Shown here piece by piece: positions 2,995 through 28,316 of a stretch of 64,000 nt of DNA. Both the position numbers and the translations under genes were made by a program. The notes below the pieces were generated by a model. The model was not told the DNA's origin, did no database searches, and worked only from the letters and a program-made list of their open reading frames with translations. The stretch is from Fistulifera solaris (Eukaryota; Bacillariophyta; Bacillariophyceae; Naviculales; Stauroneidaceae): the NCBI GenBank assembly GCA_030295235.1, contig AP026152.1, positions 124,001 through 188,000 of the forward strand, read 5' to 3'. Each line of letters opens with the position of its first letter. Position 1 is the first letter of the stretch.

Positions 2995-3767
2995 ATGACG
3001 ACAAACGACAAAATTGTTCACTTGGATGTCGGAGGTACACTCTATAAAGTCTCCCGCGATACGCTCGAAGTTGCGAAGGCTCCATGCTAGCGAGTTTGAT
3101 CTCGGATCAATGGAAAGAAGGCAATTCGCATGAACCCATCTTCATCGATCGCAACGGTCGTTTGTTTGAGTACGTTCTCGATTATTTGCGAACGAACGAA
3201 GTATACTTACCATCCACGGTCAACGTTGCTGCTGTGCACAAAGACTTTGAGTACTACGGCCTCAATGTGGATATGAACCAAGTACAGGTAACGAATGACG
3301 ATAAAAAGCTTCATGAGCTCCAAACAAAGGTGCTTACACTGTTGGAGACCATCACACCCAAAAATGTTGCGAGCAACGACATCGTCCATTTCAATGTCGG
3401 AGGTACTCAGTATGACGCATCTCCGAATCTGTTCGGATATCATTGCGGAAGCCACGTGCTGGCGAGCTTGGTGAGGAACTCAAACGTTTCCGAGAAACAA
3501 TCCATTTTCATTGATCGCAACGGCCATTTATTTGCCTATGTCCTGGAATATTTGCGAACCGGCAAATGCAATTTGCCTATATCAGTGAGTCGTGACGCTG
3601 TTCGAGAGGAATTTGAATACTACGGTATACGTTTTGTGCCGCAGTATGACCAGGCATGTTTTGACGGCATTGCAAAGAAGCTTAACCAATTACTTCGCGA
3701 CCAAATTTGGAGCGACTCCATCGAGAAATCTAATCGGACGGTGATGTCCCATTGGCGGACGTCATGA
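2995..3767 (+). CDS. Double-BTB (T1/KCTD-type) protein, one frameshift
   Basis: Starts at ATG 2995 with IVHLDVGGTLYKVSRDTLE, the first strand and helix of a T1-type BTB fold. About one base is lost near 3069-3072 (paralogues read CTCGAACGTTGCG, here CTCGAAGTTGCG); the frame then continues MLASLISDQWKEGNS..FIDRNGRLFEYVLDYLR. After a short linker a second BTB domain begins near 3378 (IVHFNVGGTQYDAS, FIDRNGHLFAYVLEYLR). The second domain is shorter and followed by a brief, poorly conserved tail, so the C-terminal module of the other paralogues is mostly missing. KCTD-type BTB domains usually oligomerise, and many act as Cullin-3 adaptors; that role here is inference. No intron and no membrane segment. 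The single indel is not in a homopolymer, so it may be real. Confidence 0.7.
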
Positions 3768-4056
3768 CTATTTTTCGAATTGATAGTGAGAAGACCCTTG
3801 CGTACGTGATTTGAAGAGACAGGAAGATATCGAATTTTCGCATAACCTTACACTGCCGAGACTTTTGGACTTGGTATTATTTTCTATAGTGTGGTATTAG
3901 CAACGATCCAGCAAGTTTCAATGACAGTCGGCATAAGAAATACTTCGCTGTTATTTCCAGTTCAGCGGCCGGTGATAAGGGTTTTGCGCGTCAAACAGTT
4001 TTCTCAACAAAGTCAACAAAACTCTCAACGCCGATCGTAGAGTGACGAAAGACACC

Positions 4057-4733
4057 ATGTCCAAGATTGTCCAGTTGGATGTCGGAGGAACGCTTTACAA
4101 GGTCTCACGCGACACGCTCGAACGATGCGAGGGCTCCATGTTGGCCAGTTTGATATCGGAAGATTGGAGGGAAGGAAATTCGGATGAGCCGATCTTTATT
4201 GATCGTAACGGTCGACTCTTTGAGTATGTGCTGGACTACTTGCGGAACAACGAGATCCATGTGCCACCTTCTGTAAGTATTGCTGTCTCAAGAAAGAGTT
4301 TGAGTATTTCGGACTCTTGGAAAGCATTGTGGCAGAGGAAGTCCCAGCCGTCGTTGAGTTGGACGTCGGAGGCATGCTTTATAAAGTTTCACGCCAGGTC
4401 TTGGAGCGCTATAAGGATTCCAAGCTTTGGAAAATCGTATCAAGCCACTTTCAAACAGGTGTATTCGACAGCAATGGTCCCGTCTTCATTGACCGCAACG
4501 GTCGCTTGTTTGAGTATGTTTTGGAGCACGTGCGCACCGACGCATTGAGACTTCCCCCCTCAGTGAGTAACATTGCTGTTAACAAAGAATTGAGATATTA
4601 TGGAGTTGCACCCTATCAGATAATACAGTATGACACACGGTTCGACGAACTGGCGGAACAGATTCTATACGAGCTACTGGCAGTTACAGATTTGGGAAAC
4701 GAAATGGTTCACGAATTGCGATTCAATCGGTAG
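4057..4733 (+). CDS. Double-BTB (T1/KCTD-type) protein, one frameshift
   Basis: Starts at ATG 4057 (MSKIVQLDVGGTLYKVSRD). The first BTB domain runs to PPSVSIA near 4285, where the frame slips. Beyond the slip the expected LKKEFEYFG continues, followed directly by a second BTB domain (VVELDVGGMLYKVSRQVLE, then FIDRNGRLFEYVLEHVR) ending in a short tail. The arrangement is the same as in the gene at 2995, so this pair probably arose by tandem duplication of a two-domain ancestor. Frame change lies near 4280-4295 and is not in a long homopolymer. The usual C-terminal module (ExLRxCLxxxGLxV) is absent. Confidence 0.65.
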
Positions 4734-5011
4734 TTTATGTACGAGCGGATCCTGCTGAACTTTTGCTTTAACCTTGGCACGTCTTTTTCGTGGTCTCATC
4801 ATCAGTGTCACGAAATTCACTAGCATAGCTGTTGAGATTTTTTAGTGAAAACAACGATGCTTCGTCAACATTTTCCTCTAAAGCAAATGTTCCATTCTAT
4901 GCTACTAATAACAATCTACAATATATTTGAGGTCTTTGTCGTTGGATTTTCGTGATGGTAACCTTGCACGTGAAGTTTTTGATGGGTCATCATTCTGGTT
5001 TGTGCGAGTCC
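4734..5011. other. Intergenic, AT-rich
   Basis: No feature recognised apart from AT-rich stretches. Confidence 0.4.
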
Positions 5012-5329
5012 CTAGACATTATTTAGAATCTCAAGGGACTTGAGGACGCATGCTTGAAAGGTGGGGTCGAGGTTATGCCAGTCCGCATTCACGAAAAGCT
5101 CCGCCGCGCTAGACCTCGAGTGAGCGCCCGTGATCCTCTCCAATTCACAAATCTTATGCATCATGTTCTTACGGTCTAGTATGGATCGTGCAATACACAT
5201 CACGTCAAACCAGCCGCATGTTTCTAGCGTCGACGCAAATTGAGCCGCATTGTCGTTGCCGCTACATCGTTTCAAATACGGCAGCTTGCGAGGAATTTGT
5301 CTCATAAATCTGGGCGACCTTACAATCAT
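5012..5329 (-). CDS. Small hypothetical protein, divergent from a BTB gene
   Basis: An uninterrupted 105-residue frame from ATG 5329 to a stop at 5012. Composition looks protein-like (LKRCSGNDNAAQFASTLE, CGWFDVMCIARSILDRK, ELERITGAHSRSSAAELF, ADWHNLDPTF), with regular hydrophobic spacing that suggests a helical bundle. Its start is 6 bp from the start of the BTB gene at 5335 on the other strand, so the two would share a promoter. I do not recognise the family. It may be a remnant of a longer gene. Confidence is limited because no second copy is seen in the window. Confidence 0.4.
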   Translation of the reverse strand: MIVRSPRFMRQIPRKLPYLKRCSGNDNAAQFASTLETCGWFDVMCIARSILDRKNMMHKICELERITGAHSRSSAAELFVNADWHNLDPTFQACVLKSLEILNNV

Positions 5330-5334
5330 ACACG

Positions 5335-5975
5335 ATGAGGAACGATTGTGAGAAACTGGTGCGATTCAACGTAGGAGGTACACACTATGATGTGTCGTAT
5401 GACACTCTGAAGCGCTGCAAAGACTTCGTCTATCCTTCTCAAGCTGGCGAGCTTAGTATCCGGCAAATGGGAAGAAGGCAATGGTAACAAGAAATCCACC
5501 TTCATTGACTGTGACAAGCAACCTTTTTCGATTGAGCGTGACGGAGTATTGTTTCAGTACGCGCTCGAGTATTTGCGAACGGGTCAGCTTTGCTTGCCGC
5601 CGTCCGTGAGCCGTGCTGCAATGAAGGAAGAGTTTGAATATTACGACATTGATGTTGATATGACGAGAGTCAAAGAGAGAAACGATGATGTTCATCTCGG
5701 CGATTCGATTATCAAGGACCTCAGCATGATTCTTGCCGAAAAACTGGCATTGCAGGTTGCGGCATACGTCGAGTATGATTTCATTCGAAGAAATTTACCT
5801 TCGACGGGCGGTGAAAGTGATTCTTCCTACTTACGATTACTCTCATTTAAAGACCCACGAAGACTTGTTGAGCGAGCGTTTACTTGCCAGAGGATTGGAA
5901 TACGTATCGAGCGAGTTCGATGGTACGCGAATTGGGTTACCGCCAAGAAGGCGGAAGACAACAGCAAATCGTTGA
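5335..5975 (+). pseudogene. BTB (T1-type) gene with C-terminal module, two frameshifts
   Basis: ATG 5335 opens with KLVRFNVGGTHYDVSYDTLKRC. A short slip near 5425-5440 inserts material before KLASLVSGKWEEGNGN, after which one frame runs through FIDC, an 8-residue insertion not seen in paralogues (DKQPFSIE), RDGVLFQYALEYLRTG and EEFEYYDIDVDM. A second slip near 5820-5830 is needed to reach ILPTYDYSHLKTHEDLLSE and RLLARGLEYVSS, the C-terminal module shared by the cluster. Its closest relative in the window is the relic at 9215-9487 (NDYSHLEQHLDLL). Two indels and the insertion suggest decay, though one or both indels could be consensus errors. Confidence 0.6.
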
Positions 5976-7082
5976 GAAAGTAGATATTCGTATGCGTTTA
6001 CGGCGAGCGTTCACGATGTTTCGAAAGTCCACCACCTAGCTAAGTTATCTGATAGCTGCGCGTGGATCTCTGCTTCAGATGAATTAGATAGATAACCTTA
6101 GCCTCGTTCTTCTTTCTTCAGTATGTGAGTGGCGAATGGCGATGACGTCAAACTGAATTTAGGAACCCCTTACTTTCTGCCAAACGGAAATGTCGCGTTG
6201 TTGACGCGTAATTTTGTACGAGGCTTAGCTATTTACCACGTGTTCACGGAAAAGCCACGCCTTCGATGCGGAAAGCCGGCGCTTGCGCACGTATTTTGTG
6301 CGTGGATTACTTGTGGTTCAAGAAAGGCCACGCGTTTTAAAGTGGTGGTGTGAAACGTGACATCGCGTAGACAGAGGTTAACCGGTACTGGATACGTGTA
6401 CATTCCTTTATAGTAGAAATAAGACTATCGGGTTAAATGTATGCTTAGGAAGAAAGGCTGCGTATCATCAATCATCAACGTGTTTTGTGAAAGTCTTTCT
6501 CGATTGTGACGTTGGGGGAGAAACGCCACGCAGACGTTGCGAGAAAGTCTCCCAAAATGACTCTTGAATGACAGAAACTCTCCCGAAATGACGCTCGAAA
6601 GGAGAAACGATGGTGGCACACGACAAAAGCGCCACGCGGACTTTCCTTATACTTAGAGAGAGGATGCGGCCGAGCCGCAGTGGGTGGGCATGCATGAATG
6701 AGCGAGCATTTTCACGTTTATCTTTCGCGAAGAGGCCGAGCATTACTAATGTTTGAAGGCTATGTGGTGAGCATCTGCCACTCTAGACGCAAATTTAGCA
6801 ACTTTGCAAAGACGAAAAGCCAAGATGAAAACCGGATCGGTCGGACTTTTCCGTCCACATGAATTCGCGGCGTTACTTTCTGTCCGTTTTCGTAGTTTCT
6901 CGCAATCGTGCGACCGTTGTCGAAAACCATCCCCGACGAAGTTGGCTTTCCAGCACCAGTTCGCTGCTCAAAAGAATTCACTATTTTGGAAGAGTCCTAG
7001 TTATCGACTCTTTTAAAGCTTGGCTTTTGAACGATGACGAACGATGTCTCATCTCGAAGCCATGGCCAAACATTAAACACCG
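5976..7082. other. Intergenic with promoter-like repeat
   Basis: Contains repeat module copy 1 (listed separately) and several short frames without family resemblance. GCCACG and TGACG motifs are frequent. The stretch after 6760 is probably the upstream region of the intact BTB gene at 7083. Confidence 0.4.
6375..6655 (+). repeat. Promoter-like repeat module, copy 1
   Basis: Shares ACCGGTACT, GCTGCGTATCATCAA, CAACGTGTTTT, GAAACGCCACG and GAAACTCTCCCGAAATGACG in the same order with the copy at 7995. Looser versions of the order (GCGT, CCACG, TCTCCC, TGACG, GCCACGCG) occur at 22171 and 25574. Lies about 430 bp upstream of the intact BTB gene at 7083, in the same orientation. Confidence 0.55.
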
Positions 7083-7751
7083 ATGCGCCGAAGGAAGCCG
7101 ATGAGTTTTCTTTATCAATATCAACGAGTCCACGAGTCAAAGCGAGATGACGTCGTTCACTTGAATGTAGGAGGTACACGCTATGAAGTAGCCCGGAGCA
7201 CGTTGATGCGCTACGAAGGTTCCATGCTGGCCAGTCTTGTTTCCGGCAAATGGAAAGAAGGAAATGGAGAAGAAGAGATCTTTATTGATCACAATGGCCG
7301 TCGCTTTGAATGGGTATTGGACTATTTGCGATCGGATCGAGCGTATGTTCCCGATCTATCGGATCAATCGGCACTCCAAGAGGAGCTGGACTATTTTGGT
7401 ATCGCTACCGATATGAGCAAAGTTTACTTGAAGGATGACTTTCTGACAATCAACGAGCTTAGTAAGGAGATCAAGGAGCTTAAAGCGACTATTGCGCAGA
7501 AAGAAAAGCGAATAGCCGCCATCAAAGAGTCGTATCGCTTGGCCGGTGTGTTCGCTAGCTATTCCGAAAGTGACGAGCTCCTATTTCGTATGAGTGTTGA
7601 CAAGAATGTCGACAAAGAGATGCTTCGCAGCTGCTTGTTATCTCGCGGACTCCACATTGTTCGATCCGGCAGTAAGAAATCCGGCGAAACGACAGTAACT
7701 GTATGTGCCTTTGGACAGAAGGAGAAATTTACGGCCAAGACGAAAAAGTAG
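7083..7751 (+). CDS. BTB (T1/KCTD-type) protein with C-terminal module, intact
   Basis: 222 residues from ATG 7083, no intron. BTB domain at residues about 20-112: VVHLNVGGTRYEVARSTLMR, GSMLASLVSGKWKEGNGEEE, FIDHNGRRFEWVLDYLR, ELDYFGIATDM. Then a DDFLTINELSKEIKELK helix with a probable short coiled coil to residue about 155 (IAQKEKRIAAIKESYRLAG), and the shared C-terminal module (DKEMLRSCLLSRGLHIV), ending in a basic tail. No membrane segment, so it is not a channel. T1-type BTB domains form pentamers or tetramers and often recruit Cullin-3; the C-terminal module would then be the substrate- or partner-binding part (inference). Belongs to the same subtype as the genes at 18883, 20118, 22718 and 23976. 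Confidence 0.85.
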   Translation: MRRRKPMSFLYQYQRVHESKRDDVVHLNVGGTRYEVARSTLMRYEGSMLASLVSGKWKEGNGEEEIFIDHNGRRFEWVLDYLRSDRAYVPDLSDQSALQEELDYFGIATDMSKVYLKDDFLTINELSKEIKELKATIAQKEKRIAAIKESYRLAGVFASYSESDELLFRMSVDKNVDKEMLRSCLLSRGLHIVRSGSKKSGETTVTVCAFGQKEKFTAKTKK

Positions 7752-8307
7752 AAAGAAACTGGTTGGACGCCGAATGTATCTTGAATTATTCACCTGCCTA
7801 TTTCAGTTTTATGCTTGTGTCAGTGCAGCTTTTATAATCGATGGCGTGTGATTTTTCTTTTAAGATTATCTTGTATTTTCTCTGCGTCTCTATCGATTGT
7901 AGTTTTATCTAAATGTAGGACCTTTAGTGATGATTGATGATGATTCGTGAAACAGCCGTTAATGTGACTCACGCATGAGATCTCACGAACAAAGTCAACC
8001 GGTACTCGCTGGTCAAGTAGTACTTCAAAAATCGTTTTTCGGTATGACGATTTTTGTACCGAAACGAAGAAACGCTGCGTATCATCAACGTGTTTTCTCG
8101 GAAACTTTCGCATTTTCGACGTTTTCGAGGAAACGCCACGTAAAGTGGGACGAAACTCTCCCGAAATGACGGAAAACAAAACGAGAACTCGGACACCATG
8201 AGAAAATGCCACGCGAAGCTATTATCCGCATGTGACGATGAGCCTGTCGTGCGACAGCAGCACCACATTACGTCTTCACTTAGACTAGTTGGTCTTCCTA
8301 ATAGATA
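7752..8307. other. Intergenic with promoter-like repeat
   Basis: Holds repeat module copy 2 (listed separately) and AT-rich sequence downstream of the BTB gene. No gene recognised. Confidence 0.4.
7995..8215 (+). repeat. Promoter-like repeat module, copy 2
   Basis: Closest match to copy 1: ACCGGTACT, AACGCTGCGTATCATCAA, GAAACGCCACG and ACTCTCCCGAAATGACG in the same order and orientation. Includes a short inverted repeat around ATCGTTTTTCGGTATGACGATTTTT (8031-8055). Ends about 90 bp before the unrecognised frame at 8308. Confidence 0.55.
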
Positions 8308-9214: not shown

Positions 9215-9487
9215 GGCGCCTCTCGCGGCAGGATCTTAGTGCGTCCGTTGCGGAAAAACTTGCAGCACAGGTATCTGCCGTTGTCGAATCACGATTTCAT
9301 ACGGAAGAATTTGCCGCATGCAGGTGTCAAGACCATCCTACCGACCAATGATTACTCTCATCTAGAACAACATCTGGATTTGTTGCGCGATCGATTACTT
9401 TCGAGAGGACTGGAGTATATTTCAAGTGATGTTGTGTCGAGTCGATCGTGGGTCTCCGTTCAGAACGCTGAAAATTGTTACTGGTAA
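9215..9487 (+). pseudogene. Second BTB-family C-terminal relic
   Basis: Two frames together match the end of the gene at 5335: LSASVAEKLAAQVSAVVES aligns with LSMILAEKLALQVAAYVEY, and then DFIRKNLPHAGVKTILPTND, YSHLEQHLDLLRDRLLSRGL, EYISSD. One indel lies near 9297. The BTB domain is missing. Confidence 0.55.
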
Positions 9488-9562
9488 GCAAGATGAGCGG
9501 ACAGCATTCAACGAGAAGTTTCCGACTGCAAACCATGGATGTTGATCCGTGTACACAGGTAG

Positions 9563-9920: not shown

Positions 9921-11832
9921 AATGAAGAGAAGTATTGAAGACCTGTCTCCGACGATTCGAGAAAACGCGATGCTGTTGTCTCTTGACGACGACGCTCATG
10001 GCAGTGTTGCTGCGTACGCGAGCCAGCGATCATCCGAGTATGAGACTTTCTTGTAAGCGCATTCGCGACATGATCGACTCGTTTCAATACCGAAAAGAAC
10101 GCAGCGTGCAAGGTTTTGCGGAAGTGAATGTCGATCTGCTCTCTGGTTTCGAGCAGTATCAGCTGTCAAAGAAATCGATGGGGAAGATCCTCCCAGTGAG
10201 GAAGATGATTACTTCGATGAAAATTACGATACATTTGGATACATTCATGAATACGGCGACCACTCATTTGAAAGAGATTGTTTTCGCGTGTTTGTAGACG
10301 GCCGTCCGCTGCACAAGCTTCGCAAAAGGGAAGAATTTAATTTGCATGTACGGCTTTTGCCACTCTGTGCCCCATTTTGGGATCTATGTGATTGCTACAA
10401 CCAAACCCTCTGCGATCTGGGAACTTCTTTATTTATCGATAAAGGCAAGCCCAAGGTCGCGTCGATCAAAAACGCAGTTGCTTGTAATGACGATTTCCCT
10501 TTACCAAGTCTGTTGTATATTCAAGACTTTGTCCTTCCTTTTGAACACCGATTTATTGGAGTCAACCGTTGGGCCGTTGCTCATCAAGGAAGTCCTGAAG
10601 CTCTTACTAGGAATGTACTCAATATCCATGTACGTCCCGTATAGAGAAACACAATTTACCAAAGAGGAAGCCGATGCTGAGAGAAACACACGCTTTCGTT
10701 TTGACGAAGAAAAGACGGATGAAGATATCTAAGCCGAAGAAGAGCGGCAAATTCGTTATGAAGCTTACAAGCACCAAGACATGCGACAGTTCTTTAGGGC
10801 TGGGTTTCAGCAAGTAAATGACCGATCAGTCGTAGAGAAGTCTGACTACAGCTATGTTTTCGCCTCTCCTGAAGACGCAAACGAGTCGATTTTAACGCTG
10901 GAAGAAACATTGAAAATACCTATCGCACGCAAAACGCCCACGCGACCGGAACCGAGGGGTTTAGCAAGGGAATTTTGGCTTCTCGTCAGAAAACAAATTT
11001 GCGAATGGGATGTCATGACCGAAGAGTTGAATAATCTACGCATACCTCCCCTCGAGAAGCCTTTGTTCAGCCCAAATGATTGAGGACTTTAACGGCAATG
11101 TGCAGCAATTAAGAGATCAAGAGGACGTGCTCAATACATCAATACAGGAGCGTGCACTGATGGCTCAAGACGTTAGCGCATTGGAGGAATCCAGAGAGAC
11201 TGTGCGCGATCTCGTCGTGACCTAGAAGAGAAGATCGACAAGTTGTGCAGTACATTGCAAACCGGATTTGCTGAAGCGGTAATTTGAAAGGAGGCAGAAA
11301 TGAAAACTTGGCAGGATGAAGCTCGAAACGAAGTAAAGACTATTATTGAGAAGGCGGAAAATATCCTGCAGCTGTTCTATGAATCGGATGTGATTCACGT
11401 TGCTGCAGCTGGGAAGAATTTGGATCAACTTTTGATGCTGCTTGATTTCGTGCCAGACTCCGACAAGCCAAAGGCTGTGAACGCACTTGATCGCTTAGGG
11501 CTAACACCTCTTATGGTATTGGCGAGCATCGCGCCTAGTGCTGGTTGACCAAATGTCGACAAACAATGGAGGCTCTAATCAAAATGGGCGCTGATACTGG
11601 TATCGTTCATGCTTCTAACGGTTTATCAGCTTTTGGACACTTTCGCGACAGTCACAAGCAAGAAGAAATGCCCGAATCATGTTTCGCTTACCAGAGCCAT
11701 CCGGCTGAAGTTAAAGCAGAAGTTTTATGAATTGAAGCGCTTCTACGCCCTGCCGATGGCCCAACCCCTGCCGACGGCTATATAGAAACAAAGAAAGAGT
11801 CAAATTCGGATGACGACGAATCTGATTATTGA
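9921..11832 (+). pseudogene. Ankyrin-repeat gene, broken (copy 1)
   Basis: Tandem paralogue of the gene at 12083. Order of parts: a short N-terminus (MKRSIEDLS), a leucine-rich stretch that could be an F-box-like helix (MAVLLRTRASDHP, RLSCKRIRDMIDSF), a middle domain (RVFVDGRPLHKL, CDCYNQTLCDLGTSLF, SLLYIQDFVLP), a charged linker, a helical segment and ankyrin repeats (SDVIHVAAAGKNLDQLL, DRLGLTPLMVLASIAPSAG, ALIKMGADTGIVHASNGLSA). It needs at least four frame changes and has several in-frame stops (for example ATC TAA at about 10727 where the sister has ATC CAA, and TTA TGA at 11725 where the sister has TCG CGG). The comparison of silent sites with copy 2 shows which frame was once coding. 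Function unknown. Confidence 0.65.
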
Positions 11833-12082
11833 AAAGAGTATTTTGACTTCGGTTTAAATTTGCTCTTATATTTTATACGGAGTAAACCCTTTTTTCACCG
11901 TAGCCGCTGACACGACAGGTTTTAGTCACGAGAAAAATTCAGTGCCGCAAAAGATCTCCTCCGCCGCCTTCAGCGTTCGCGAAAATCGCGTCGCAGGCAA
12001 CAAATATAAACGATTAAGCATTCCGAATTTTGATCAAAACAAAAAGAGTGTGTGTTAGATTTTATGTTATTACTTCAGCAAT

Positions 12083-13981
12083 ATGCAGCAAAGTAAGGAA
12101 GATCTGGCTCTTCGTCGGCGAACGGCACTACTTTGCTCTCCCTTGATGACGACGCTCATGGCAGTGTTGCTGCGGACTCGAGCCAGCGATCATCCGAGTT
12201 TGCGACTCTCTTGTAAGCGCATCCGTGATATTATCGACTCGTTTCAATTTCGGAAAGAGAGAAGTGTGCAAGGTTCCGCGGAAGTGAATGTCGAACTGTT
12301 ATCGCCCGTTTGAGCAGTATAAGAAAACATCATCGTTCAGGGAAGATCCTCCCTCGGAAGACGACGATTACTTCCGTGATCACTACGATGAACTGGGGTT
12401 TATTTATGAATACGAAGACTATTATTTTGAAACATTTTGCTTTCGAGTGTTTGTGGACGGTCGTCCGTTGCACAAGCTCAAGACCGACGACTTCCAGTTG
12501 CAAGTCCGGATCCTGCCGCTTCAGTCTCCCTTCTGGAGCGCGTGTGATTGCTACAGTCAAGAACTCTGCGATCTTGGAACATCCTTGTTTACGAATAGTG
12601 GTGAGCCAAAGGTAGAATCGCTCAAAGGTCTCATTGATCCTGACTTTGGGCCTTATTACTTGCTCTATATTCAAGAGTTTATGTTGCCGTATGAATATCG
12701 ATCTCTCGGAGTCCACCGTCGGGCCAAATCTCATCAAGAGCATGCTGTGGACTTTTGGTGGATGGTACTCAATTGCTCTCTACATCCCTTATAAAGATAC
12801 ACAGTTTACAATGGAAGAGGCTGACGCTAGGAGATATAGAGAAAAGTTCACTTTTCGGCGATGAAGATGAAAGAACCGATGAAGAAATCCAAGCGGAGGA
12901 AGAACAACAGAAACGGCATGAAGTTTTGAGAGAGCAAGATATGCGTCAATTTTTCAAAGCTGGATTTCATCAAGTCAATGACCGGTCTATTATCGAGACC
13001 TCGGAGTACAGCTACGTTTTTACAACCCCTAAAGATGCCGAGAAGCCGATTCTATCCGTGGAAGACGCATTGAACAAGCCTATTGCACGCAAGACACCCA
13101 CAAAGCCGGAAGCGACAGGTCTAGCACGGGAACTTCAGCTTTTCGTCAAAAAGAAAGCTATCGAATGGAATGGCATGGTGGAAGAGCTAAAACGATTACG
13201 GGACCCCTCTTGGGGGTTCTAGTATCGCCAGTGAGTTTGACGCTTTTCTGGCCAATTGCAGCAGCTACGAAATCAGGAAGACATGCTCACCAATGCTATG
13301 CACCAGCGTACACTGATGGGCATGGATAACCGTGAGCCGGAGGAAGAGACGTAGTTCGCTCGGCGCGAGTCGCGATAGAACAGAAAATTGATCAAATGCG
13401 CAATCTATTGCAAACAGGGTTCGCTGAAGCATCACAGCGCAAAGAGGTTGAGTTCGAGGCTTTAAAAGCAAGCACTCGCGGAGAAATAAAGTCAATTGTT
13501 GACAAGTCGGAGAGCTCCTTGCAGCTTTTTCTGGATTCTGATGTGATCCACTTTGCGGCAGCGGGGAATACTATGGATTTGCTGGAGATGCTGCTGGAGT
13601 TATTGCCCGCTTCAGAAAGGTCAAAGGCGTTGAACGGGTTCGATCGCTTAGGACTCCACGCCTCTCATGGTTGTAGCAAGCATAACTCCCAGCGCAGGTA
13701 TATCCACTGGTCGTCGTATTATGGAGACTTTAATCAACATGGGAGCAGACAAGAACATCGTTCATGCTTCTCAGGGTCTCTCCGCATTGGGACAATTCCG
13801 AAGTCACTACAAGGCCGCACAGTTACCTCGTATACTTTTTGGCTTGCAACAGCCGTCTTCCGAGGTCCAAGATGAAGTGTCGCGGATTGAAGCGCTTTTG
13901 AGGCCTGTCAATGGCCCCACTCCTGAGGACGATGCTCAGTTAAACAAAAAGTCCGAGGCAGATTCAGATGGCGATTTTTGA
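12083..13981 (+). pseudogene. Ankyrin-repeat gene, broken (copy 2)
   Basis: Better preserved sister of the gene at 9921. Parts: MQQSKEDLALRR, MAVLLRTRASDHPSLRLSC, KRIRDIIDSFQFRKERSVQG, then from about 12305 FEQYKKTSSFREDPP, FRVFVDGRPLHKL, CDCYSQELCDLGTSLF, LLYIQEFMLP, then in another frame NIDLSESTVGPNLIKS and YIPYKDTQFTMEEAD, then DMRQFFKAGFHQVNDRSI, a stop-containing linker, and ankyrin repeats (SDVIHFAAAGNTMDLLEML, ETLINMGADKNIVHASQGL) to a stop at 13981. At least five frame changes. The change near 12692 is at the same place as in copy 1 (near 10545), so it predates the duplication or is built into the gene. Others are private to this copy. Confidence 0.65.
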
Positions 13982-16014: not shown

Positions 16015-16681
16015 ATGGAATCAAAAGGCAGCGCAAGAAGCGAAATTATTCGACTGAACGTCGGAGGTACACATTATGAAGTATCTCTTGACACGCTGGA
16101 ACGTTGTAAGGGCTCCATGCTAGCGAAATTGGTGTCGGGGCAGTGGAAAGAAGGCAGTTCGGAAGAGCCCATCTTTATTGACCGCAACGGTTTATTGTTT
16201 CAGTATGTGCTCGAAAATTTACGCACCACCAAGTTCCATTTGCCTGATTCGGTGAGTCCAGGCGCTGTTCAAGAAGAACTCGAGTATTTTGGAATAGATG
16301 CCGATATGGGCCTTGAGTCCGGGAGATACAACAACCATTATTTCCTCGAAAAGGCAAAAGATATCATCGACAGCATGCAAGGGCAAGCGGCGTACCGAGC
16401 TGCCGAGGAAAGCTCTCGAGTGACGGAAAAAAATCATAGAAAAGCAAGAACTCGTGTTTTTTGTCATGATTGAATATTACAAGATAAATCCATCCCCTGG
16501 AGCTGAACTTCTGCTCAAAATACCTTTGAAGTATCGCCGAATTTGTGATTCCTCTTGGGTTAAAGAAGATTTGCGAAGACGAGGATTCGAAATCTTGGCG
16601 ATAGGCGAATCGTCTGAAACCATGCGGATCCGAAAGATAACGCAAGCAAACGAAGGTATGAAAAAACGACGAATTTCTTAA
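16015..16681 (+). CDS. BTB (T1/KCTD-type) protein, third C-terminal subtype
   Basis: ATG 16015 (MESKGSARSEIIRLNVGG). BTB at residues about 10-100: THYEVSLDTLERCKGSMLAK, FIDRNGLLFQYVLENLR, ELEYFGIDADM. The frame slips at an A7 run (16427-16433); with one A fewer it continues EKIIEKQELVFFVMIEYYKI, NPSPGAELLLKIPLKYRR to a stop at 16681. This C-terminus differs from the GL-V module of most paralogues and is matched by two scraps downstream (25005-25091 and 26090-26281), so it defines a separate subtype. The +1 homopolymer change is probably a consensus error. Confidence 0.65.
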
Positions 16682-17758: not shown

Positions 17759-18460
17759 ATGCCTGTAATTTCGCAAGAGGATGCTTCTGTTAGCGATTAT
17801 CACCGATCCGGCAAAAGGGATGCGGAGGGTAATGCTAAAAAAGATTATGATGATTCTTCTGCTTCCTCAAATGGCAGGCCCGATCGACAACGAAGGCATA
17901 AGATTGTTCAGCTAAACGTGGGAGGGAAGCATTACGAAGTTTCAAGGGACACCCTTGAACGCTGCAAGGGTTCCATGCTGGCGAGCTTGATTTCCAGCAA
18001 CTGGAGAGAAGGAAACTCGGACGATAGCGAACCGATCTTCATTGACCGCAACGGTCGCCTTTTTGAGTACGTACTCGACTACTTACGAACCAACAAAGTA
18101 CACGTGCCGCTTTCGGTAAGCCGATCGGCCTTACAAGAGGAGCTAGAATACTTCGGTGTCGACGCAGACATGAGTCAAGTGATTGACATGTATAGCGTGC
18201 GTTATCTTCGGGTGATTGAAGAAAAACAACAATTCCACGAAGCGAGATCATTGCATTATCTGAGAGAAGCTAATGCAATAAAGGCATCCGTGCATCTTGA
18301 GAACAAAGCGGTCATCCATAGACTACCACCAAGGATTAGCATACCTGAAGAGTATCGGCCATTCGACTTGGAGACATTAGAAAAATGCTCGGAGCTACGC
18401 GGACTAAGAGTGTCCCTCCCTGCTGGCAACACGAATACTGTCGAAGTAGCTCTTAATTGA
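17759..18460 (+). CDS. BTB (T1/KCTD-type) protein with C-terminal module, intact
   Basis: 233 residues from ATG 17759, no intron. A disordered N-terminus of about 45 residues contains KRDAEGNAKK, similar to KRNADG in two sisters. BTB at residues about 48-140: KIVQLNVGGKHYEVSRDTLE, GSMLASLISSNWREGNSD, FIDRNGRLFEYVLDYLRTN, ELEYFGVDADM. A linker helix (YLRVIEEKQQFHEARSLHYL) is followed by the C-terminal module with the features ENKAVIHRLP, RISIPEEYRPFDLETLEKCS, ELRGLRVSLP. The subtype is the same as the gene at 26591. Adaptor function is inferred from the family; substrate unknown. Confidence 0.85.
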   Translation: MPVISQEDASVSDYHRSGKRDAEGNAKKDYDDSSASSNGRPDRQRRHKIVQLNVGGKHYEVSRDTLERCKGSMLASLISSNWREGNSDDSEPIFIDRNGRLFEYVLDYLRTNKVHVPLSVSRSALQEELEYFGVDADMSQVIDMYSVRYLRVIEEKQQFHEARSLHYLREANAIKASVHLENKAVIHRLPPRISIPEEYRPFDLETLEKCSELRGLRVSLPAGNTNTVEVALN

Positions 18461-18882: not shown

Positions 18883-19587
18883 ATGAAAGTATCTCAATCA
18901 CCCACAACTGAACAAAACAGAGTCGCAAAGAGAAACGCAGATGGTAGCTTAAAGTTCGATGTTGAACCATCGACGACAGTTGGCTCTCCAGCTAAAACGA
19001 ATATCGATATCGTACGTTTGAATGTCGGAGGCATCCGCTATGAAGCATCCCGTGATACTTTGACAAGATACAAGGAATCCATGTTAGCAAAACTCGTATC
19101 CGGTACATGGAAAGAAGGCGACGGCGCAAACGAGATCTTTATTGATCGCGATGGCGAGCGTTTCAAATACATTTTGGACTATCTACGCAACGATCGTGTC
19201 CATTTGCCCGACATTCCTAGCCAGAAAGCTCTCGAAGCTGACTTTGATTACTTTGGTATTGATGCCGACATGAGTAAGATTTCCGTGATGGACGACTTTT
19301 CCGCCATCGAGGAACTCAACTTGCAAATCTTGGAGCATATAAAAGACATTAAGGAGAAAAAGATGAGGGTCGCTGCCATTCGAGAATCGTATCGCTTGGC
19401 TAACAAATTTTCTCGCTTCGCTGAAGGGGGGTCACGCCAGGCTTCTTATCGAGGAAGATATTAACAAGAAGATACTCAGTAGTTGTTTGCTAGCACGCGG
19501 ACTGCACGTTATTCGTTTCGATATGAAAAGGAGTCGGGCACACATGTGCTTTTATGCATTCCCAGCATGAAGAGTACGTGGGTGTAG
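18883..19587 (+). CDS. BTB (T1/KCTD-type) protein with C-terminal module, two homopolymer slips
   Basis: ATG 18883; N-terminus contains RVAKRNADGSLKFD. BTB at residues about 45-135: IVRLNVGGIRYEASRDTLTR, ESMLAKLVSGTWKEGDGANE, FIDRDGERFKYILDYLRND, DFDYFGIDADM, then DDFSAIEELN and a coiled-coil helix to RVAAIRESYRLANKFSRFAE. A G6 run (19426-19431) carries one G too many; beyond it comes HARLLIEEDINKKILSSCLL, ARGLHVIRFDM. An A4 run (19526-19529) has one A too few; beyond it KESGTHVLLCIPSMKSTWV ends at 19587, matching KDK/VSMKDKI ends of sisters. Both slips look like consensus errors, so I call this a gene rather than a pseudogene. Confidence 0.65.
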
Positions 19588-20117: not shown

Positions 20118-20858
20118 ATGCCCAATACTCGACGCGAATTACTTCGTGCAAATAATCTGCGCCGATCGAAGCGAAATGCGGACGGTCAACCCAAGCAAGA
20201 TGATGCTTCGTCTCGCGCAAACACCATTTCACCGACAAATGATCAATTGCCGGCCACCGTTCGTTTAAATGTCGGGGGTACGCATTATCAGGTAGCGCGC
20301 GACACGTTGATGCGCTATGAAGGATCGATGCTGGCGACGCTGGTATCGGGCAACTGGCGCGAAGGGGACGGGCGAGAAGAGATCTTTGTGGACCGCGATG
20401 GAAAACTTTTCGGATTAGTCTTGACCTATCTCCGATGCTTTCGAGTCTACGTATCCGATTTCGCCGAACAAGCAGCTCTGAAAGCTGAACTGGATTACTT
20501 TGGAATCGATGTGGATCTGAGCAAAGTTATGGTGAAGGATGACTTTGCGACTATTCACGAACTTAGTAACGAAAACAAGAACTACGAGCGACTCATCGAA
20601 GCAAACAAGAAGAAAATTGCAGCCATTCAAGAGTCGTATCGCATTGCGGGGAGTTTTTCGAGATTGATCGAGAAGCATGATCGGCTTTACGTGCGTCACT
20701 GTCTTACCAACGGTATTGATCGAGAGTTGCTACGTAACTGCTTGCTATCTCGTGGATTGTATGTTGTTGCTTTCAGCCAAAGAGAGTCGGGCCAGGACGC
20801 AGCCGACATTTGTGTGGTAAGCATGAAAGATAAAATCCGCCCGGCTTCAGCAAATTAG
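20118..20858 (+). CDS. BTB (T1/KCTD-type) protein with C-terminal module, intact
   Basis: 246 residues from ATG 20118, no intron. N-terminal basic motif NLRRSKRNADGQPKQDD, conserved with the gene at 18883. BTB at residues about 53-145: TVRLNVGGTHYQVARDTLMR, GSMLATLVSGNWREGDGREE, FVDRDGKLFGLVLTYLRCF, ELDYFGIDVDL. Next a DDFATIHELSNENKNYERLI helix and IAAIQESYRIAGSFSRLIEK, then the C-terminal module IDRELLRNCLLSRGLYVVAF and a variable end. LVLTYLRCF departs from the usual YVLDYLRSD, so the last BTB helix may bind differently. The codon use is as in the sisters. Role as an oligomeric adaptor is inference. Confidence 0.85.
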   Translation: MPNTRRELLRANNLRRSKRNADGQPKQDDASSRANTISPTNDQLPATVRLNVGGTHYQVARDTLMRYEGSMLATLVSGNWREGDGREEIFVDRDGKLFGLVLTYLRCFRVYVSDFAEQAALKAELDYFGIDVDLSKVMVKDDFATIHELSNENKNYERLIEANKKKIAAIQESYRIAGSFSRLIEKHDRLYVRHCLTNGIDRELLRNCLLSRGLYVVAFSQRESGQDAADICVVSMKDKIRPASAN

Positions 20859-22167: not shown

Positions 22168-22170
22168 TAA

Positions 22171-22480
22171 GTGCGTGCGTTTTTTGCGCGAAATTTCAAA
22201 CGACACAAACAAGGTGCAGCGGCACTCAGTCGGTACTATGATAGGCTAAGTACACAACGCCTTCGCTTCAATGTATAGTAGTTAGAGTAGACAGAAGAGG
22301 AAAGCCCGCGTTTCTTAACGTCACCTTGCGCGAGGCTTTCTCGCTTTGAACTTTGAACAGGAAATGCCACGTCGTTTTCGAGAAAGCATCTCCCAAACTG
22401 ACGTGACGGATACGACAAAGCGGACACTTTTGTCAAACGCCACGCGTGCGCCTTGTCCGCGTGTAGTGACAACATTGTTG
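22171..22480 (+). repeat. Promoter-like repeat module, copy 3
   Basis: Aligns in order with copy 4: GCGTGCGTTTTTT, GCGCGAA, TTCAAACG, CGGTACT, CTAAG, ACACAACGCCT, GGAAAGCC, GTCA, GAAATGCCACGTC, TCTCCC, CTGACGTGACGGATA, AAACGCCACG. Its left edge abuts the transposon. The next gene (22718) starts about 240 bp downstream. Confidence 0.6.
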
Positions 22481-22717: not shown

Positions 22718-23518
22718 ATGTTATCTCCGAGCAATAAAACTTCTGCGAAAATGGGTTCCTTTGTTGAAGACTTGTTTTATTCCCTGGTCGCCGCTTTTGC
22801 TTGGTTGCGAGTACCCATAATGAACTTTCTAGTCAAGGCCTCTGGCGCCGACGATATCAAATTCCTGTCAAAGGGCGAAGCACACAACAAATTGGATGGT
22901 TTTTTGTCGTCAGGTGTGTCTTGTATTCAAGCACGGAACGAGACTATTCGATTGAATGTCGGAGGCCTACGCTACGAGGTATCCCGTGATACTTTGACTA
23001 GATACAAGAAATTCCATGTTAGCAAGTCTTATTTCAGGGAAATGGAAAGAAGGCGATGGTGAAAGCGAAATCTTTATAGATCGTGATGGTGGGCGTTTCA
23101 AGTACGTGCTGGACTACCTTCGCTCGGATCGAGTTTCGGTGATCGATCGACTGGACCGCGCTGCGCTTCAAGAGGAGTTCGATTATTTCGGTATCGATGC
23201 CGATACGAGCAAAATCTTCATGATGGATGATTTTCTGTCAATCGACGCACTCGCGAAAGAGATCAAGGCTTATGAAGCGGTTATCGAGGAGAAAAAGAAG
23301 ACAATTGCTGTCATTCAGGAATCGTATCGCTTTGCTGGAAAGTTTGCAACCGCTGTTGATCTCAATGGGACTTGTCTGAAATTTGAATTGGAGAAAGACG
23401 TTGATAAAGAGCTTATTCGTGGTTGTTTGCTGTCGCGTGGGCTGTCCGTCGTTTCTTACGGCATCAAAAGCAAGATGTATTTACTGTGAATCTACGTCCC
23501 GCCGGCGAGAAGGCTTAA
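22718..23518 (+). CDS. BTB (T1/KCTD-type) protein with hydrophobic N-terminal extension, two slips
   Basis: Starts at ATG 22718 or 22751. Unlike its sisters, it has a hydrophobic N-terminal segment (FVEDLFYSLVAAFAWLRVPI) that could be a signal anchor or amphipathic helix. BTB: TIRLNVGGLRYEVSRDTLTR, then one T too many near 23011-23012, then SMLASLISGKWKEGDGESE, FIDRDGGRFKYVLDYLRSD, EFDYFGIDADT. Next DDFLSIDALAKEIKAYEAVI, IAVIQESYRFAGKFATAVDL and the C-terminal module DKELIRGCLLSRGLSVVSYG. A missing A near 23474 separates the last residues (DVFTVNLRPAGEKA, stop at 23518). Both slips are one-base length changes and may be consensus errors. Confidence 0.65.
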
Positions 23519-23975: not shown

Positions 23976-24701
23976 ATGTCAAGTTTTCAAGACGAAACCT
24001 CTCCGATGAAACGCCACAAAACCGCGAAAAGCGATGCGGGAGGTACGAAGACAAGCAATGCTTCTCCTCGGTCGTACATCGCCAATGCCACTTCACCAGA
24101 CAGCAAATTGGCTCCAATCGTTCAGCTGAATGTAGGAGGCACACTTTACAAAGTATCCCGCGACACGCTGATGCGCTATGAGGACTCGATGCTAGCAAAT
24201 CTCGTTTCGGGCAAGTGGAAAGAAGGTGAAGGCGACGACGAAATCTTTATAGATCGCAACGGACGACGTTTCGAATGGGTAGTTGACTACTTGCGCTCGG
24301 ATCGTGTGTATGTACCATCTTTATCGGATCAATCGGCACTAAAAGATGAATTTGACTTTTTTTGTATTGATGCCGAGATGAGCAAAGTATCGGTCGTGGA
24401 CGACTTTATGTCAATTGAACAACTTACGAAAGAGATCAAGGCGCACAAAGGGATCATTGAGCATAAAAAGAAGAAGATAGCTGCCATGAAAGAGTCGTAT
24501 AAGCTGGCGGGAAGATTTGCGAATGCTGTCGATCGTCATGGGACGTTTATGGAGATGACAATCGAAAAGGACGTCGATCAAGATCTGCTCAGCAAATGCT
24601 TGCTATCGCGCGGACTGCACCTTGTTTCCTACGCCAGCAACGAGACGGGTGCACCTGTGGTAAACGTCTGCCCTATCGGAGAGAAACATCATTTTCTTTA
24701 G
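23976..24701 (+). CDS. BTB (T1/KCTD-type) protein with C-terminal module, intact
   Basis: 241 residues from ATG 23976 (MSSFQDETSPMKRHKTAKSD). The frame is open further upstream, but the ATG at 23976 follows the TATA-like element and gives an N-terminus like those of the sisters. BTB at residues about 48-140: IVQLNVGGTLYKVSRDTLMR, DSMLANLVSGKWKEGEGDDE, FIDRNGRRFEWVVDYLRSD, EFDFFCIDAEM. Then DDFMSIEQLTKEIKAHKGII, a coiled-coil helix (EHKKKKIAAMKESYKLAG), and the C-terminal module DQDLLSKCLLSRGLHLVSYA, ending in VVNVCPIGEK. No membrane segment. Confidence 0.85.
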   Translation: MSSFQDETSPMKRHKTAKSDAGGTKTSNASPRSYIANATSPDSKLAPIVQLNVGGTLYKVSRDTLMRYEDSMLANLVSGKWKEGEGDDEIFIDRNGRRFEWVVDYLRSDRVYVPSLSDQSALKDEFDFFCIDAEMSKVSVVDDFMSIEQLTKEIKAHKGIIEHKKKKIAAMKESYKLAGRFANAVDRHGTFMEMTIEKDVDQDLLSKCLLSRGLHLVSYASNETGAPVVNVCPIGEKHHFL

Positions 24702-25091: not shown

Positions 25092-26089
25092 TTAAAGAAC
25101 TAGCTGCGTCATTGTTCCTCTTCGCTATGACCGTATCACTTCCATCGTCCGAAGAGCAGCAAGAAGAAGATAGGTGTATGAAATCTTAACACCATGGTGG
25201 GTTGAATTCTCTGTTCATCTGCATACTAACCGTACTAATGTGGCATGTGGCATGCAGATCTCTCAGAAGCCGCACCACACAGTTGACCTTACTCAGGAAT
25301 TTGTATTTCATTGTGATATGCCACGAGCGCCATAGTTCTCAGAGCTTGCGTATCCGTCGGTAGTTAAAACTGAAAAAATTCGATTGCGATCTTGTTCGGT
25401 GGTCACATATCTTCGCGACAAAGATATTGATGCATCGTTTTACGTTCTCCGCCGATCGATGATCATCGTCAAAGGAGCTCATCATCGTTACCAGGTAATC
25501 CATCGCTCATCGTTCAATAAATCATTGTCACCGCGTTCATCGTTCGCATTCATTCATCGTCACGATCTCGGAAAATTGCGTGCGTTTTTTTTTTTGCGCG
25601 AAGCTTCAAACGTCACAAAAAAAGTCACAAAAAAGAAGCGGTACTCATACGGTACTAGTTCGCTAAGAACACAACGCCTCCGCACTATGTATCGTATAGA
25701 GAGTAGCCTGGTGAGGAAAGCCTGCGTATTTTGACGTCACGCTGCACGAGGTTTTCTCGTTTTCACGGAAATGCCACGTCCCGTTCAAGAAAGGGTCTCC
25801 CCCTGACGTGACGGATAGCAAATTTCGGACACGTTTGACAAACGCCACGTGCGCCTGTCCGTTAATTGCAATGAAAGACAAAGGTGCCGCAATCGCAATT
25901 TCTATTTAATAGAATCTGATTCTTCGAGACGACCTAATCTGACACCTCTGGTCGATTGTCGTCGGGGGGAAGCGTGAAACGTCGTGATCATTCTTTCGTA
26001 GCCGTGGAGAGTGTTTTGACACCGAAAATGAATCCTTTGCTTCAAGCATACCTCTTGCTCGAACGGTAAAATCTTAAAAAAAAAACAAA
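25092..26089. other. Intergenic with promoter-like repeat
   Basis: Holds a run of CATCGT-type motifs (about 25424-25565) and repeat module copy 4 (25574-25862), then a stretch ending in an A11 run just before 26085. No gene recognised. Confidence 0.4.
25574..25862 (+). repeat. Promoter-like repeat module, copy 4
   Basis: Partner of copy 3. Shared blocks in order: TTGCGTGCGTTTTTT, TTGCGCGAA, TTCAAACG, GCGGTACTCA, CGGTACTA, CTAAGAACACAACGCCTC, GAGGAAAGCC, GACGTCAC, GAAATGCCACGTC, TCTCCC, CTGACGTGACGGATA, AAACGCCACG. It contains TGACGT/ACGTCA, the core of bZIP sites. Confidence 0.6.
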
Positions 26090-26590: not shown

Positions 26591-27199
26591 ATGACGACGA
26601 AAGACACGAAAACGAACCGACAAAAGGTTCGTTTCAACGTCGGTGGTACGCATTACGACGTATCTCGCGATACGGTCGAGCGTTGCGAAGGCTCCATGCG
26701 GGCGAGTCTAATATCGGATCGTTGGAAGGAAGGGAGCACAAAGAGTGACGATCCCATCTTCATTGACCGCAATGGGTTGCTGTTTCAGTATGTCCTGGAT
26801 TACTTGCGCAACGACAAGCTGCTGCTCCCTAGCTCAGTGAGCCGAGCTGCCGTCGCACAAGAGTTCGAGTACTACGGAATCGACGCGGATGTCGCGAAAG
26901 TGAGTGAGAAATACGGACCTATGTATCTTAGAGAGCTCAAAGAAAGGATTTGCGAGCAGAAAATTTACTTGGAATTGCTGGAAAATGAAGCTCGTGCAAT
27001 TCAGGCGTCCACATTCGTTGAAAACGAGTCGTTTAAGCATCAATTACCAGTCGATATTCGCATACCGACTGAATTTGTGCCTTTTGATGCGGAAACGCTT
27101 CGTGAATGCTCGGATCTCAAGGGGCTGATTGTGACCCTTGTACAATCCTCTGGTTCATCTAGCAGTACATCTGTTACTGTCAAAGAGAAGTCCCGCTAG
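26591..27199 (+). CDS. BTB (T1/KCTD-type) protein with C-terminal module, intact
   Basis: 202 residues from ATG 26591, no intron, with almost no N-terminal extension (MTTKDTKTNRQ). BTB at residues about 11-105: KVRFNVGGTHYDVSRDTVER, GSMRASLISDRWKEGSTKSD, FIDRNGLLFQYVLDYLRND, EFEYYGIDADV. The linker (YLRELKERICEQKIYLELLE) probably forms a helix. C-terminal module: ARAIQASTFVENESFKHQLP, DIRIPTEFVPFDAETLRECS, DLKGLIVTLV. It belongs to the subtype of the gene at 17759. The serine-rich tail is variable. Adaptor role inferred from the BTB family; the partner of the C-terminal module is unknown. Confidence 0.85.
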   Translation: MTTKDTKTNRQKVRFNVGGTHYDVSRDTVERCEGSMRASLISDRWKEGSTKSDDPIFIDRNGLLFQYVLDYLRNDKLLLPSSVSRAAVAQEFEYYGIDADVAKVSEKYGPMYLRELKERICEQKIYLELLENEARAIQASTFVENESFKHQLPVDIRIPTEFVPFDAETLRECSDLKGLIVTLVQSSGSSSSTSVTVKEKSR

Positions 27200-27784
27200 T
27201 GGTGTCCTACTCAATCGATCAGGCGTAAAAGTTGATGGTGTGTCTTTTATCCTTTACCGTTCTCGATTGCCGGTGCTTTAGTCTTCATGAATTGTAGTTG
27301 GATTGCAATAACTGTAGTATAATGTAATCGATGACTATGACAAATTTGTAACAGACTTAAGCATCCCTTCGCACCTCATCACTGAACGCGAGGGTCCTGC
27401 AAGGCCTTGCAGCAAAGGTGCTCGATGTGAGGTACTGTCGTTAATGTTGATCGGTGAGTCGCCCTAGGTGTTAGAATTAATTATCTCTCTTAATATTATG
27501 GTTTTGTTCGCCGTCGTTCGTACCGACTGAGCAGACTAAGGGATCGGTGACTCGCTTCTTGAGGAGTCCTTTTTAGTTTTCTGTCAACAACTTTTTCAAA
27601 GCCGGAACCCTATTGAAAGGGGGGTTCCTGGTAAAAATAAGCGACAAAATAATAAAATACACGATGGTCTTTTGGACAAAGAGTTTCATTGAACCAATAC
27701 AGTGACAAAATTGTTTCCAATACTGTAATTAGGCTGTTAAGATGATGATCGGAAACAGCATTAGTTTACCCTCTCGATTCTGTA
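27200..27784. other. Intergenic
   Basis: No gene. A hairpin with 7-bp arms (GGAACCC 27604-27610 and GGGTTCC 27622-27628) is the only structure noticed. Confidence 0.35.
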
Positions 27785-27845
27785 TTGACTTACGACGGTT
27801 TCTTCTGTCCGTTTCTTTCTCAATCATCGTCGAAAACAATCATCA

Positions 27846-28316
27846 ACGAAGAAACATCGTTTCAAGAAAACCTTCGGCTCCGTGGAAGAAACGAAATTTG
27901 TATTGATCGCAATGGACGACGTTTCGAGTGGATCTTGGACTATCTTCGCTCGGATCGAGTCTACTTGCCTGACCTCTCGTGTCAAGCAGCTCCGAAGGAT
28001 GGATTTGACTATTTCAACAGACGACTTCGTTGCCATTGATGAACTCGCCGAGGATCAAAGTGCATGAAGCGATCATTGATCGAAAAAGAAGAAAATAGCC
28101 GCCATCAAGAAATCGCATCGCGTGGCGTCCGAGTTCTCGAATGTTGTTGAAAAGTACGGGCTGTATTTGCAATTTTACAAGATCGGTGAAGATATCGACC
28201 AGGAGGTGCTCCGGAGCTGCTTTCTGGCTTGGGGACTGCACGTTCTTTGTGACGGCAGCAAACAGGGTAGTGGTATTACTGTCAATATATGTCTCCCTTC
28301 AAGGAAAGACGAATAG
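27846..28316 (+). pseudogene. Truncated BTB gene remnant
   Basis: The first half of the BTB domain (VGGT, SMLASL) is missing. What is left is NEICIDRNGRRFEWILDYLR, SDRVYLPDLS, a broken DYFN, then in other frames DDFVAIDELAEDQS, IAAIKKSHRVASEFSNVVE and the C-terminal module DQEVLRSCFLAWGLHVLCDG. At least three frame changes and an N-terminal deletion make this a true relic, nearest to the subtype at 7083 and 23976. It marks the right edge of the cluster. Confidence 0.65.

What the first reader, a model, noticed from the sequence alone, without database searches (positions are those of the whole stretch)
2995..28316. A 25 kb birth-and-death cluster of KCTD-type BTB genes
At least eleven BTB genes and several 3' relics lie on the same strand. 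Five are intact, and the rest range from one indel to bare C-terminal scraps. Subtypes are interleaved rather than grouped, two-domain and one-domain forms coexist, and the nearby genes outside the cluster are ordinary single copies apart from one glycosyltransferase pair. Such clusters often serve recognition or substrate choice (for example Cullin-3 adaptors). Established: T1-type BTB domains oligomerise and many KCTD proteins bind Cullin-3. Inference: the variable part selects substrates or ligands.
Basis: partly seen in the sequence, partly recalled or inferred. Interest (0 to 1): 0.75.

Follow-up and report, generated by a model that had tools for sequence, protein, structure and literature searches.

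The report
Old tandem array of BTB genes
A probably algal genome carries a row of thirteen related genes for small protein-assembling (KCTD-like BTB) proteins, five intact and several decayed; this is an ordinary kind of gene array whose members are old and conserved, with a tail domain of unknown kind that may choose the binding partner.

Summary
The array is real. Thirteen loci with 16 T1/KCTD-type BTB domains lie on the + strand from 3007 to 28313, plus one C-terminal scrap at 9229-9475; a profile search found none elsewhere in the 64 kb. Ordinary neighbours (pyruvate kinase, a glycosyltransferase) are frame-broken too, so I tested whether the broken copies are assembly errors. Neighbour breaks mostly lie near homopolymers (10 of 12), BTB breaks mostly do not (4 of 14). 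Most BTB decay therefore looks genuine, but copies with one or two breaks, c8 above all, cannot safely be called dead. The array is old: synonymous distance is undefined (saturated) in 6 of 10 pairs of intact copies and 1.15-2.17 in the rest; BTB dN/dS is 0.12-0.21. I saw no sign of recent birth or diversifying selection. Subtype order is indistinguishable from random. The five intact proteins look soluble: BTB, a helix of about 40 residues, a small beta-alpha-beta-beta tail for which no convincing relative was listed. Cullin-3 binding could not be tested. An ankyrin-like tandem pair and a four-copy noncoding element lie inside the array. Verdict: a new member of a known kind, of modest interest.

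The parts
3007..3764 (+). c1, two BTB domains (3007-3284; 3375-3644), one frame break near 3069, no C-terminal domain found
4042..4733 (+). c2, two BTB domains (4060-4314; 4344-4619), one frame break near 4284, no C-terminal domain found
5350..5933 (+). c3, BTB with a frame break near 5447; a tail-like stretch lies in another frame at 5769-5933 (weak profile score, domain E 4.7; recognised by eye)
7083..7751 (+). c4, intact subtype A: BTB, long helix, tail (a break was called near 7134 in its poorly conserved N-terminal part)
9229..9475 (+). C-terminal scrap of a lost copy, most like the tail part of c3
   Evidence: tblastn E 2e-4 to 9417; weak profile hit to 9475, domain E 2
14501..15528 (+). 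c5, two BTB domains (14522-14797; 14996-15275) plus tail; four frame breaks and two adjacent stops: pseudogene
16015..16470 (+). c6, open frame with full BTB; no helix and tail found
17759..18460 (+). c7, intact subtype B; model ma690822e208a
18883..19563 (+). c8, subtype A, two frame breaks in the tail part (near 19418 and 19522), both close to runs of 4-6 equal bases
20118..20858 (+). c9, intact subtype A
22937..23512 (+). c10, subtype A, two frame breaks (near 23010 and 23462)
23976..24701 (+). c11, intact subtype A; model m5f65780c8cab (model and alignments began at 23979)
26591..27199 (+). c12, intact subtype B
27815..28313 (+). c13, subtype A remnant without a recognisable first part of the BTB, three frame breaks
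22169..22478 (+). noncoding repeat e1, upstream of c10
25574..25890 (+). noncoding repeat e2, 73% identical to e1 over 305 columns, upstream of c12
8041..8250 (+). noncoding repeat e3, between c4 and the 9229 scrap
6426..6600 (+). noncoding repeat e4, upstream of c4
9979..13974 (+). tandem pair of another gene, ankyrin-like, not BTB (9979-11816 and 12139-13974)

Best explanation
An old tandem array of soluble KCTD-like BTB genes in a eukaryote, probably a diatom. Shown: 13 same-strand loci, five with open full-length frames coding for BTB, a predicted helix of about 40 residues and a small tail domain; strong constraint on the BTB, weaker on the tail; several decayed members. Inferred: the BTB makes the proteins assemble into homo- or hetero-oligomers, the helix extends the stalk, and the tail binds the partner. 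Some members may use the BTB to recruit Cullin-3; that step is possible but untested. Members were duplicated long ago, diverged into two subtypes (A and B), and some have since been lost.
For: BTB profile and Pfam; PDB profile search with KCTD16 first; the c7 model matches KCTD16 BTB at TM 0.75 (normalised to the target), rmsd 2.8, 38% identity; helix and beta-alpha-beta-beta tail predicted in both models; no transmembrane-like stretch in 5 of 5 intact proteins; BTB dN/dS 0.12-0.21 in the 4 of 10 intact pairs with defined dS; BTB breaks mostly away from homopolymers, neighbours' breaks mostly near them; more breaks per base than in six other genes, 14 in 8,687 nt against 3 in 7,898 nt, p=0.011, and 10 against 0 away from homopolymers, p=0.0016.
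Against: Oligomer state, Cul3 binding and expression are untested. The c11 (subtype A) model has a poor BTB (10-residue blocks down to pLDDT 41) and its fold matches are weak (TM to target up to 0.42 in the listed rows). For c7 the best fold match by E-value is the Kv3.1 channel, over a loose alignment (rmsd 20.9). No branch of the tree has full support; subtype A holds at 75/82. Break positions came from different methods for BTB and other genes, the more sensitive one in the array; in three of six settings the homopolymer contrast is not significant (p=0.11, 0.065, 0.09). One of five intact copies also drew a break call.
Confidence: 0.62

Rival explanations
1. The broken copies are functional genes and the breaks are uncorrected indels of a long-read assembly.
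For: Pyruvate kinase, whose barrel and C-terminal domains lie in different frames that meet within a few residues, one glycosyltransferase and ten further places that I took outside the array look frame-broken, mostly near homopolymers. Both c8 breaks lie near homopolymers. In the BTB tree the first domains of c1 and c2 and the domains of c8 and c10 have end branches (0.09-0.25) within the range of the intact copies (0.07-0.36).
Against: 10 of 14 BTB breaks have no run of four equal bases within 15 nt; c5 has four breaks and two stops, c13 lacks part of its BTB and has three breaks, c6 lacks a tail.
Confidence: 0.2
2. A fast-turning recognition locus under diversifying selection, comparable to immune or mating clusters.
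For: Weaker constraint on the tail; the highest tail dN/dS of any pair, 0.78, is c12 with the broken c10; decayed copies; in Seminavis robusta BTB/POZ proteins are among the annotated families strongly expressed in sexual stages, and some genes with polymorphism suggesting positive selection belong to such families (PMC7335047, passages).
Against: All intact paralogues are deeply diverged; where defined, dN/dS between intact copies is 0.12-0.35, tail included. The Seminavis list of main tandem-duplicated families seen does not name BTB.
Confidence: 0.1
3. Mostly neutral drift of a dispensable old array: tandem copies accumulate and are lost without a special role.
For: Subtype order indistinguishable from random and a spread of states from intact to scrap.
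Against: Five copies keep strongly constrained BTB domains.
Confidence: 0.25

Closest known systems
Animal KCTD proteins (KCTD16, KCTD7, KCTD1, KCTD5)
   Same: T1-type BTB, soluble, separate C-terminal domain; best PDB relatives by profile; KCTD16 BTB is a close fold match
   Different: long helix and beta-alpha-beta-beta tail without a convincing match in the rows listed; tandem array; oligomer state and Cul3 binding unknown
Kv channel T1 domains (Kv4.3, Kv3.1)
   Same: same BTB subfamily; Kv4.3 is the best single-sequence hit of c7 and Kv3.1 its best fold hit by E-value
   Different: no transmembrane-like stretch; lower profile score than KCTD16 and KCTD7
BTB/POZ families of the pennate diatom Seminavis robusta
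   Same: BTB/POZ gene families in a diatom rich in tandem duplicates (PMC7335047, passages)
   Different: the passages do not say whether those families are KCTD-type or tandem; no sequence could be compared
BTB-box families of Parachlamydiaceae
   Same: tandem arrays of BTB genes with pseudogenes, described as birth and death (PMC4209131, passages)
   Different: bacterial, BTB joined to leucine-rich repeats
BTB/POZ KCTD-like proteins of giant viruses
   Same: fold matches in BFVD, such as Clandestinovirus, TM 0.59 to target
   Different: overall alignments are loose in most rows; no relative confirmed in viral contigs

Membership tests
KCTD-like (T1-type BTB, non-channel) | PF02214 BTB domain | tested here: met
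   10 of 11 submitted loci above the Pfam cut-off
KCTD-like (T1-type BTB, non-channel) | soluble, no transmembrane segment | tested here: met
   maximum 19-residue hydropathy 0.38-1.14 in five of five intact proteins; the usual threshold of about 1.6 is recalled
KCTD-like (T1-type BTB, non-channel) | BTB fold of KCTD type | tested here: met
   c7 model to KCTD16 BTB, TM 0.75 to target; Kv3.1 ranks first by E-value over a loose alignment; the c11 model was too poor to judge
KCTD-like (T1-type BTB, non-channel) | C-terminal domain homologous to an animal KCTD tail | tested here: inconclusive
   profile stretches end by position 112 of 213 except KCTD5 (up to 150) in 46 sequences; KCTD5 and KCTD1 fold alignments over the whole model are loose (rmsd about 14-18); the tail was not searched alone
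KCTD-like (T1-type BTB, non-channel) | pentamer or other oligomer | not testable with these tools
   only single-chain models were made
Cullin-3 adaptor | binds Cullin-3 | not testable with these tools
   aromatic residues are present at the DYFGI/EYYGI stretch, but such residues occur in binders and non-binders alike (PMC4431850, passages)
Kv channel | T1 joined to a channel | tested here: not met
   the five intact ORFs end after a small soluble tail
Birth-and-death gene family | pseudogenes among tandem copies | tested here: met
   c5, c13 and the 9229 scrap; read support not available
Birth-and-death gene family | species- or strain-specific gains and losses | not testable with these tools
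   no genome held and no related eukaryote sequence

The most novel reading that the evidence does not exclude
A stramenopile-specific KCTD subclass (BTB, long helix, beta-alpha-beta-beta tail) in which an array of paralogues assembles into mixed oligomers, each tail adding a different partner specificity, so that gain and loss of members re-sets what one complex recognises, for instance in sexual stages.
Probability: 0.07. Interest if true: 0.65.

Novelty: new member of a known kind. Interest (0 to 1): 0.3.

Why it matters
It gives five intact, soluble-looking KCTD-like paralogues from a probable alga with a tail domain of unknown kind, in an array where old divergence, constraint and decay can be compared side by side. 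It is also a caution: frame breaks in this sequence also hit housekeeping genes, so pseudogene counts from such windows need a neighbour control, and the homopolymer contrast used here is a cheap one.

Tried and rejected
Whole-genome search for other BTB_2 copies: no genome is held. Relatives in viral contigs: 44 pattern matches, none confirmed. Relatives in prokaryote genomes: 39 pattern matches, one confirmed locus, L001, matching residues 162-212 (helix and start of the tail) at 33% identity; taken as chance. Rfam (gathering threshold) and tRNA searches of the window: nothing. An intron instead of a frame break in c2: a GTAAGT stretch is present at the break, but the two frames meet without a gap; rejected by inspection. 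A different tail type in c3: by eye its tail looks like subtype B with an insertion; not tested. A promoter role for the noncoding element: it lies upstream of c4, c10 and c12 and before the 9229 scrap, but a 9-mer scan of 900 nt upstream of 14 starts (the scrap's start was assumed) found the AACGCCACG word at those four only; left open. YN00 failed for most pairs, so NG86 and codon-position differences are used. Papers: searches on diatom or algal BTB were 4 papers, all listed; 320 papers, 20 listed; 9, all listed; 6,252, 20 listed. In what I saw of them (listings, and passages of PMC13149256, PMC7335047, PMC12803021 and PMC6742357) no KCTD-type array in a diatom is described; PMC12803021 holds no BTB, POZ or KCTD.
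Full report
Observation. A profile made from window BTB domains finds 16 domains in 13 loci, all on the + strand between 3007 and about 28030, and nothing elsewhere in the six frames of the 64 kb. Pfam names the domain BTB_2 (PF02214); 10 of 11 submitted loci pass the cut-off (c3's piece missed at 20.1 against 21.4; c10 and c13 were not submitted). tblastn extends c13 to 28313 and adds a tail scrap at 9229-9417; a tail profile carries the scrap to 9475 and shows a tail-like stretch of c3 in another frame, both with weak scores. Five loci are open from start to stop through BTB, helix and tail: c4, c7, c9, c11 and c12. Three loci hold two BTB domains (c1, c2, c5).

Host. No tool named the organism, and no genome is held. 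The NusG-like protein at 54425-55741 (Pfam below cut-off) begins with a signal-like stretch and SSAFCP; I recall a similar ASAF motif from plastid targeting in diatoms and their kin, so a diatom is my inference.

Are the broken copies broken? Ordinary neighbours look frame-broken too. Pyruvate kinase has its barrel in one frame and its C-terminal domain in another, the halves meeting within a few residues of PDB relatives. The glycosyltransferase at 28426-29743 has one break against its paralogue. A codon-usage path through the window with a frameshift state called nine breaks outside the array. I took these nine and three more that I set at segment ends by eye (42070, 44856, 54460; the aldo/keto reductase break among them rests on a Pfam match for one half only); wider gaps between segments, such as 57836-58615, were left out as possible introns or spacers. 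Against these 12 stand 14 BTB breaks from frameshift-tolerant alignment; the c3 tail break was dropped before the count because it is not localised, and c5's two stops were not counted. A run of four or more equal bases lies within 15 nt of 10 of 12 neighbour breaks (30% expected) and 4 of 14 BTB breaks (24% expected), Fisher p=0.0079. All six settings point the same way; the p values are 0.11, 0.0079 and 0.0079 for runs of four within 10, 15 and 20 nt, and 0.065, 0.09 and 0.014 for runs of five. Per base, BTB loci have 14 breaks in 8,687 nt against 3 in 7,898 nt of six other genes (p=0.011), and 10 against 0 away from homopolymers (p=0.0016). Against all 22 coding segments outside the array (23,910 nt) it is 14 against 12 (p=0.003) and 10 against 2 (p=0.00007) (one search had used 19 of the 22). 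Detection is more sensitive in the BTB loci, because homology was used there, which favours this contrast. As a control, one of five intact copies (c4) also drew a break call, near 7134 in its poorly conserved N-terminal part. My reading: two kinds of break, assembly indels near homopolymers in the neighbours and mostly true decay in the array. c5, c13 and the scrap are dead; c1, c2, c3 and c10 probably; c8 may be whole. c6 is open but no tail was found.

Age and selection. Among the 10 pairs of intact copies, NG86 gives a defined BTB dS in 4 (1.15-2.17) with dN/dS 0.12-0.21; 6 are undefined, that is saturated. For the tail 4 of 10 are defined, dN/dS 0.26-0.35; the highest tail value of any pair is 0.78, c12 with the broken c10. 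Differences at codon positions 1/2/3 are 0.274/0.230/0.605 for the BTB (880 comparisons), 0.538/0.437/0.663 for helix and tail (987) and 0.631/0.607/0.664 for the N-terminal part (244). So the BTB is strongly kept, the tail less, and the N-terminal part hardly. These are old duplicates, not assembly copies and not a recent burst. In the tree, subtype A is one clade at 75/82 and no branch is fully supported; the second domains of c1 and c2 and both domains of c5 have long end branches (0.69-0.94), the first domains of c1 and c2 and the domains of c8 and c10 have 0.09-0.25, and c3, c6 and c13 have 0.22-0.36, against 0.07-0.36 for the intact copies. Order along the array is not related to kinship by Mantel tests (p=0.30 and 0.12) or runs (P(<=6)=0.29).

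Proteins. Models from 7 and 9 window sequences give BTB, a helix of 38-45 residues and a beta-alpha-beta-beta tail. The c7 model matches KCTD16 BTB at TM 0.75 normalised to the target, rmsd 2.8, 38% identity; by E-value Kv3.1 comes first over a loose alignment (rmsd 20.9). The c11 model has a weak BTB and weak matches. A profile of nine window ORFs ranks KCTD16 (2e-16) and KCTD7 (2.3e-15) before Kv4.3 (1.3e-11), although c7 alone ranks Kv4.3 first. None of the five intact proteins has a transmembrane-like stretch. For the tail no convincing relative stood in the 50 rows listed of each fold search or in the 46 profile hits; it was not searched alone, and a planned second structural comparison was not available. 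Held papers say that KCTD BTBs form varied oligomers, prevalently pentamers, and that Cul3 binding depends much on a variable loop and is not universal (PMC5664961, PMC4431850, PMC10856315; passages). Cul3 use here stays open.

Context. In Seminavis robusta, BTB/POZ proteins are among the annotated families strongly expressed in sexual stages, and some genes with polymorphism suggesting positive selection belong to such families; the main tandem families it lists do not name BTB (PMC7335047, passages). In an Antarctic Nitzschia, KCTD-annotated BTB/POZ families are reported as contracted (PMC13149256, passages). In a kelp, a KCTD9-annotated gene is female-biased (PMC6742357, passages). These make a sexual-stage role a fair guess and no more.

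Inside the array there are also an ankyrin-like tandem pair (9979-11816 and 12139-13974, 68% over 1.88 kb; ankyrin hits below cut-off in 1 of 5 pieces submitted) whose frames are not continuous in either copy, introns and indels not told apart, and a noncoding element in four + strand copies with no further match outside the array at E up to 1. Two of these copies are 73% identical over 305 columns, although the genes after them (c10, subtype A; c12, subtype B) are far more diverged; a younger spread or constraint would explain it, and I could not decide.

Verdict.

Noticed in passing
9979-11816 and 12139-13974: A tandem pair of another gene inside the BTB array, ankyrin-like (Ank_5 E 0.0024, below cut-off), 68% identical, frames not continuous in either copy; a 51-nt stretch at 9562-9612 also matches both units (63% and 75%).
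   Followed up: partly
6426-6600, 8041-8250, 22273-22478, 25689-25880: A noncoding element of about 210 nt in four + strand copies, all inside the array and all with AAACGCCACG, which occurs nowhere else in the window; a weak partial copy may lie at 6186-6262 (E 1e-4).
   Followed up: partly
32390-33863 (-): Pyruvate kinase is split between two frames beside a run of five equal bases, as if by an assembly indel.
   Followed up: yes
   Followed up: yes
51998, 54193, 54440: CGACTTTTTGC occurs three times in the window, once on + and twice on -, each within about 20 nt of one of the frame breaks that I took outside the array; a context-bound assembly error or a slippery site would both fit.
   Followed up: partly
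54425-55741 (-): NusG-like protein (Pfam below cut-off) with a signal-like start and SSAFCP, which I recall as resembling plastid-targeting motifs of diatoms.
   Followed up: no
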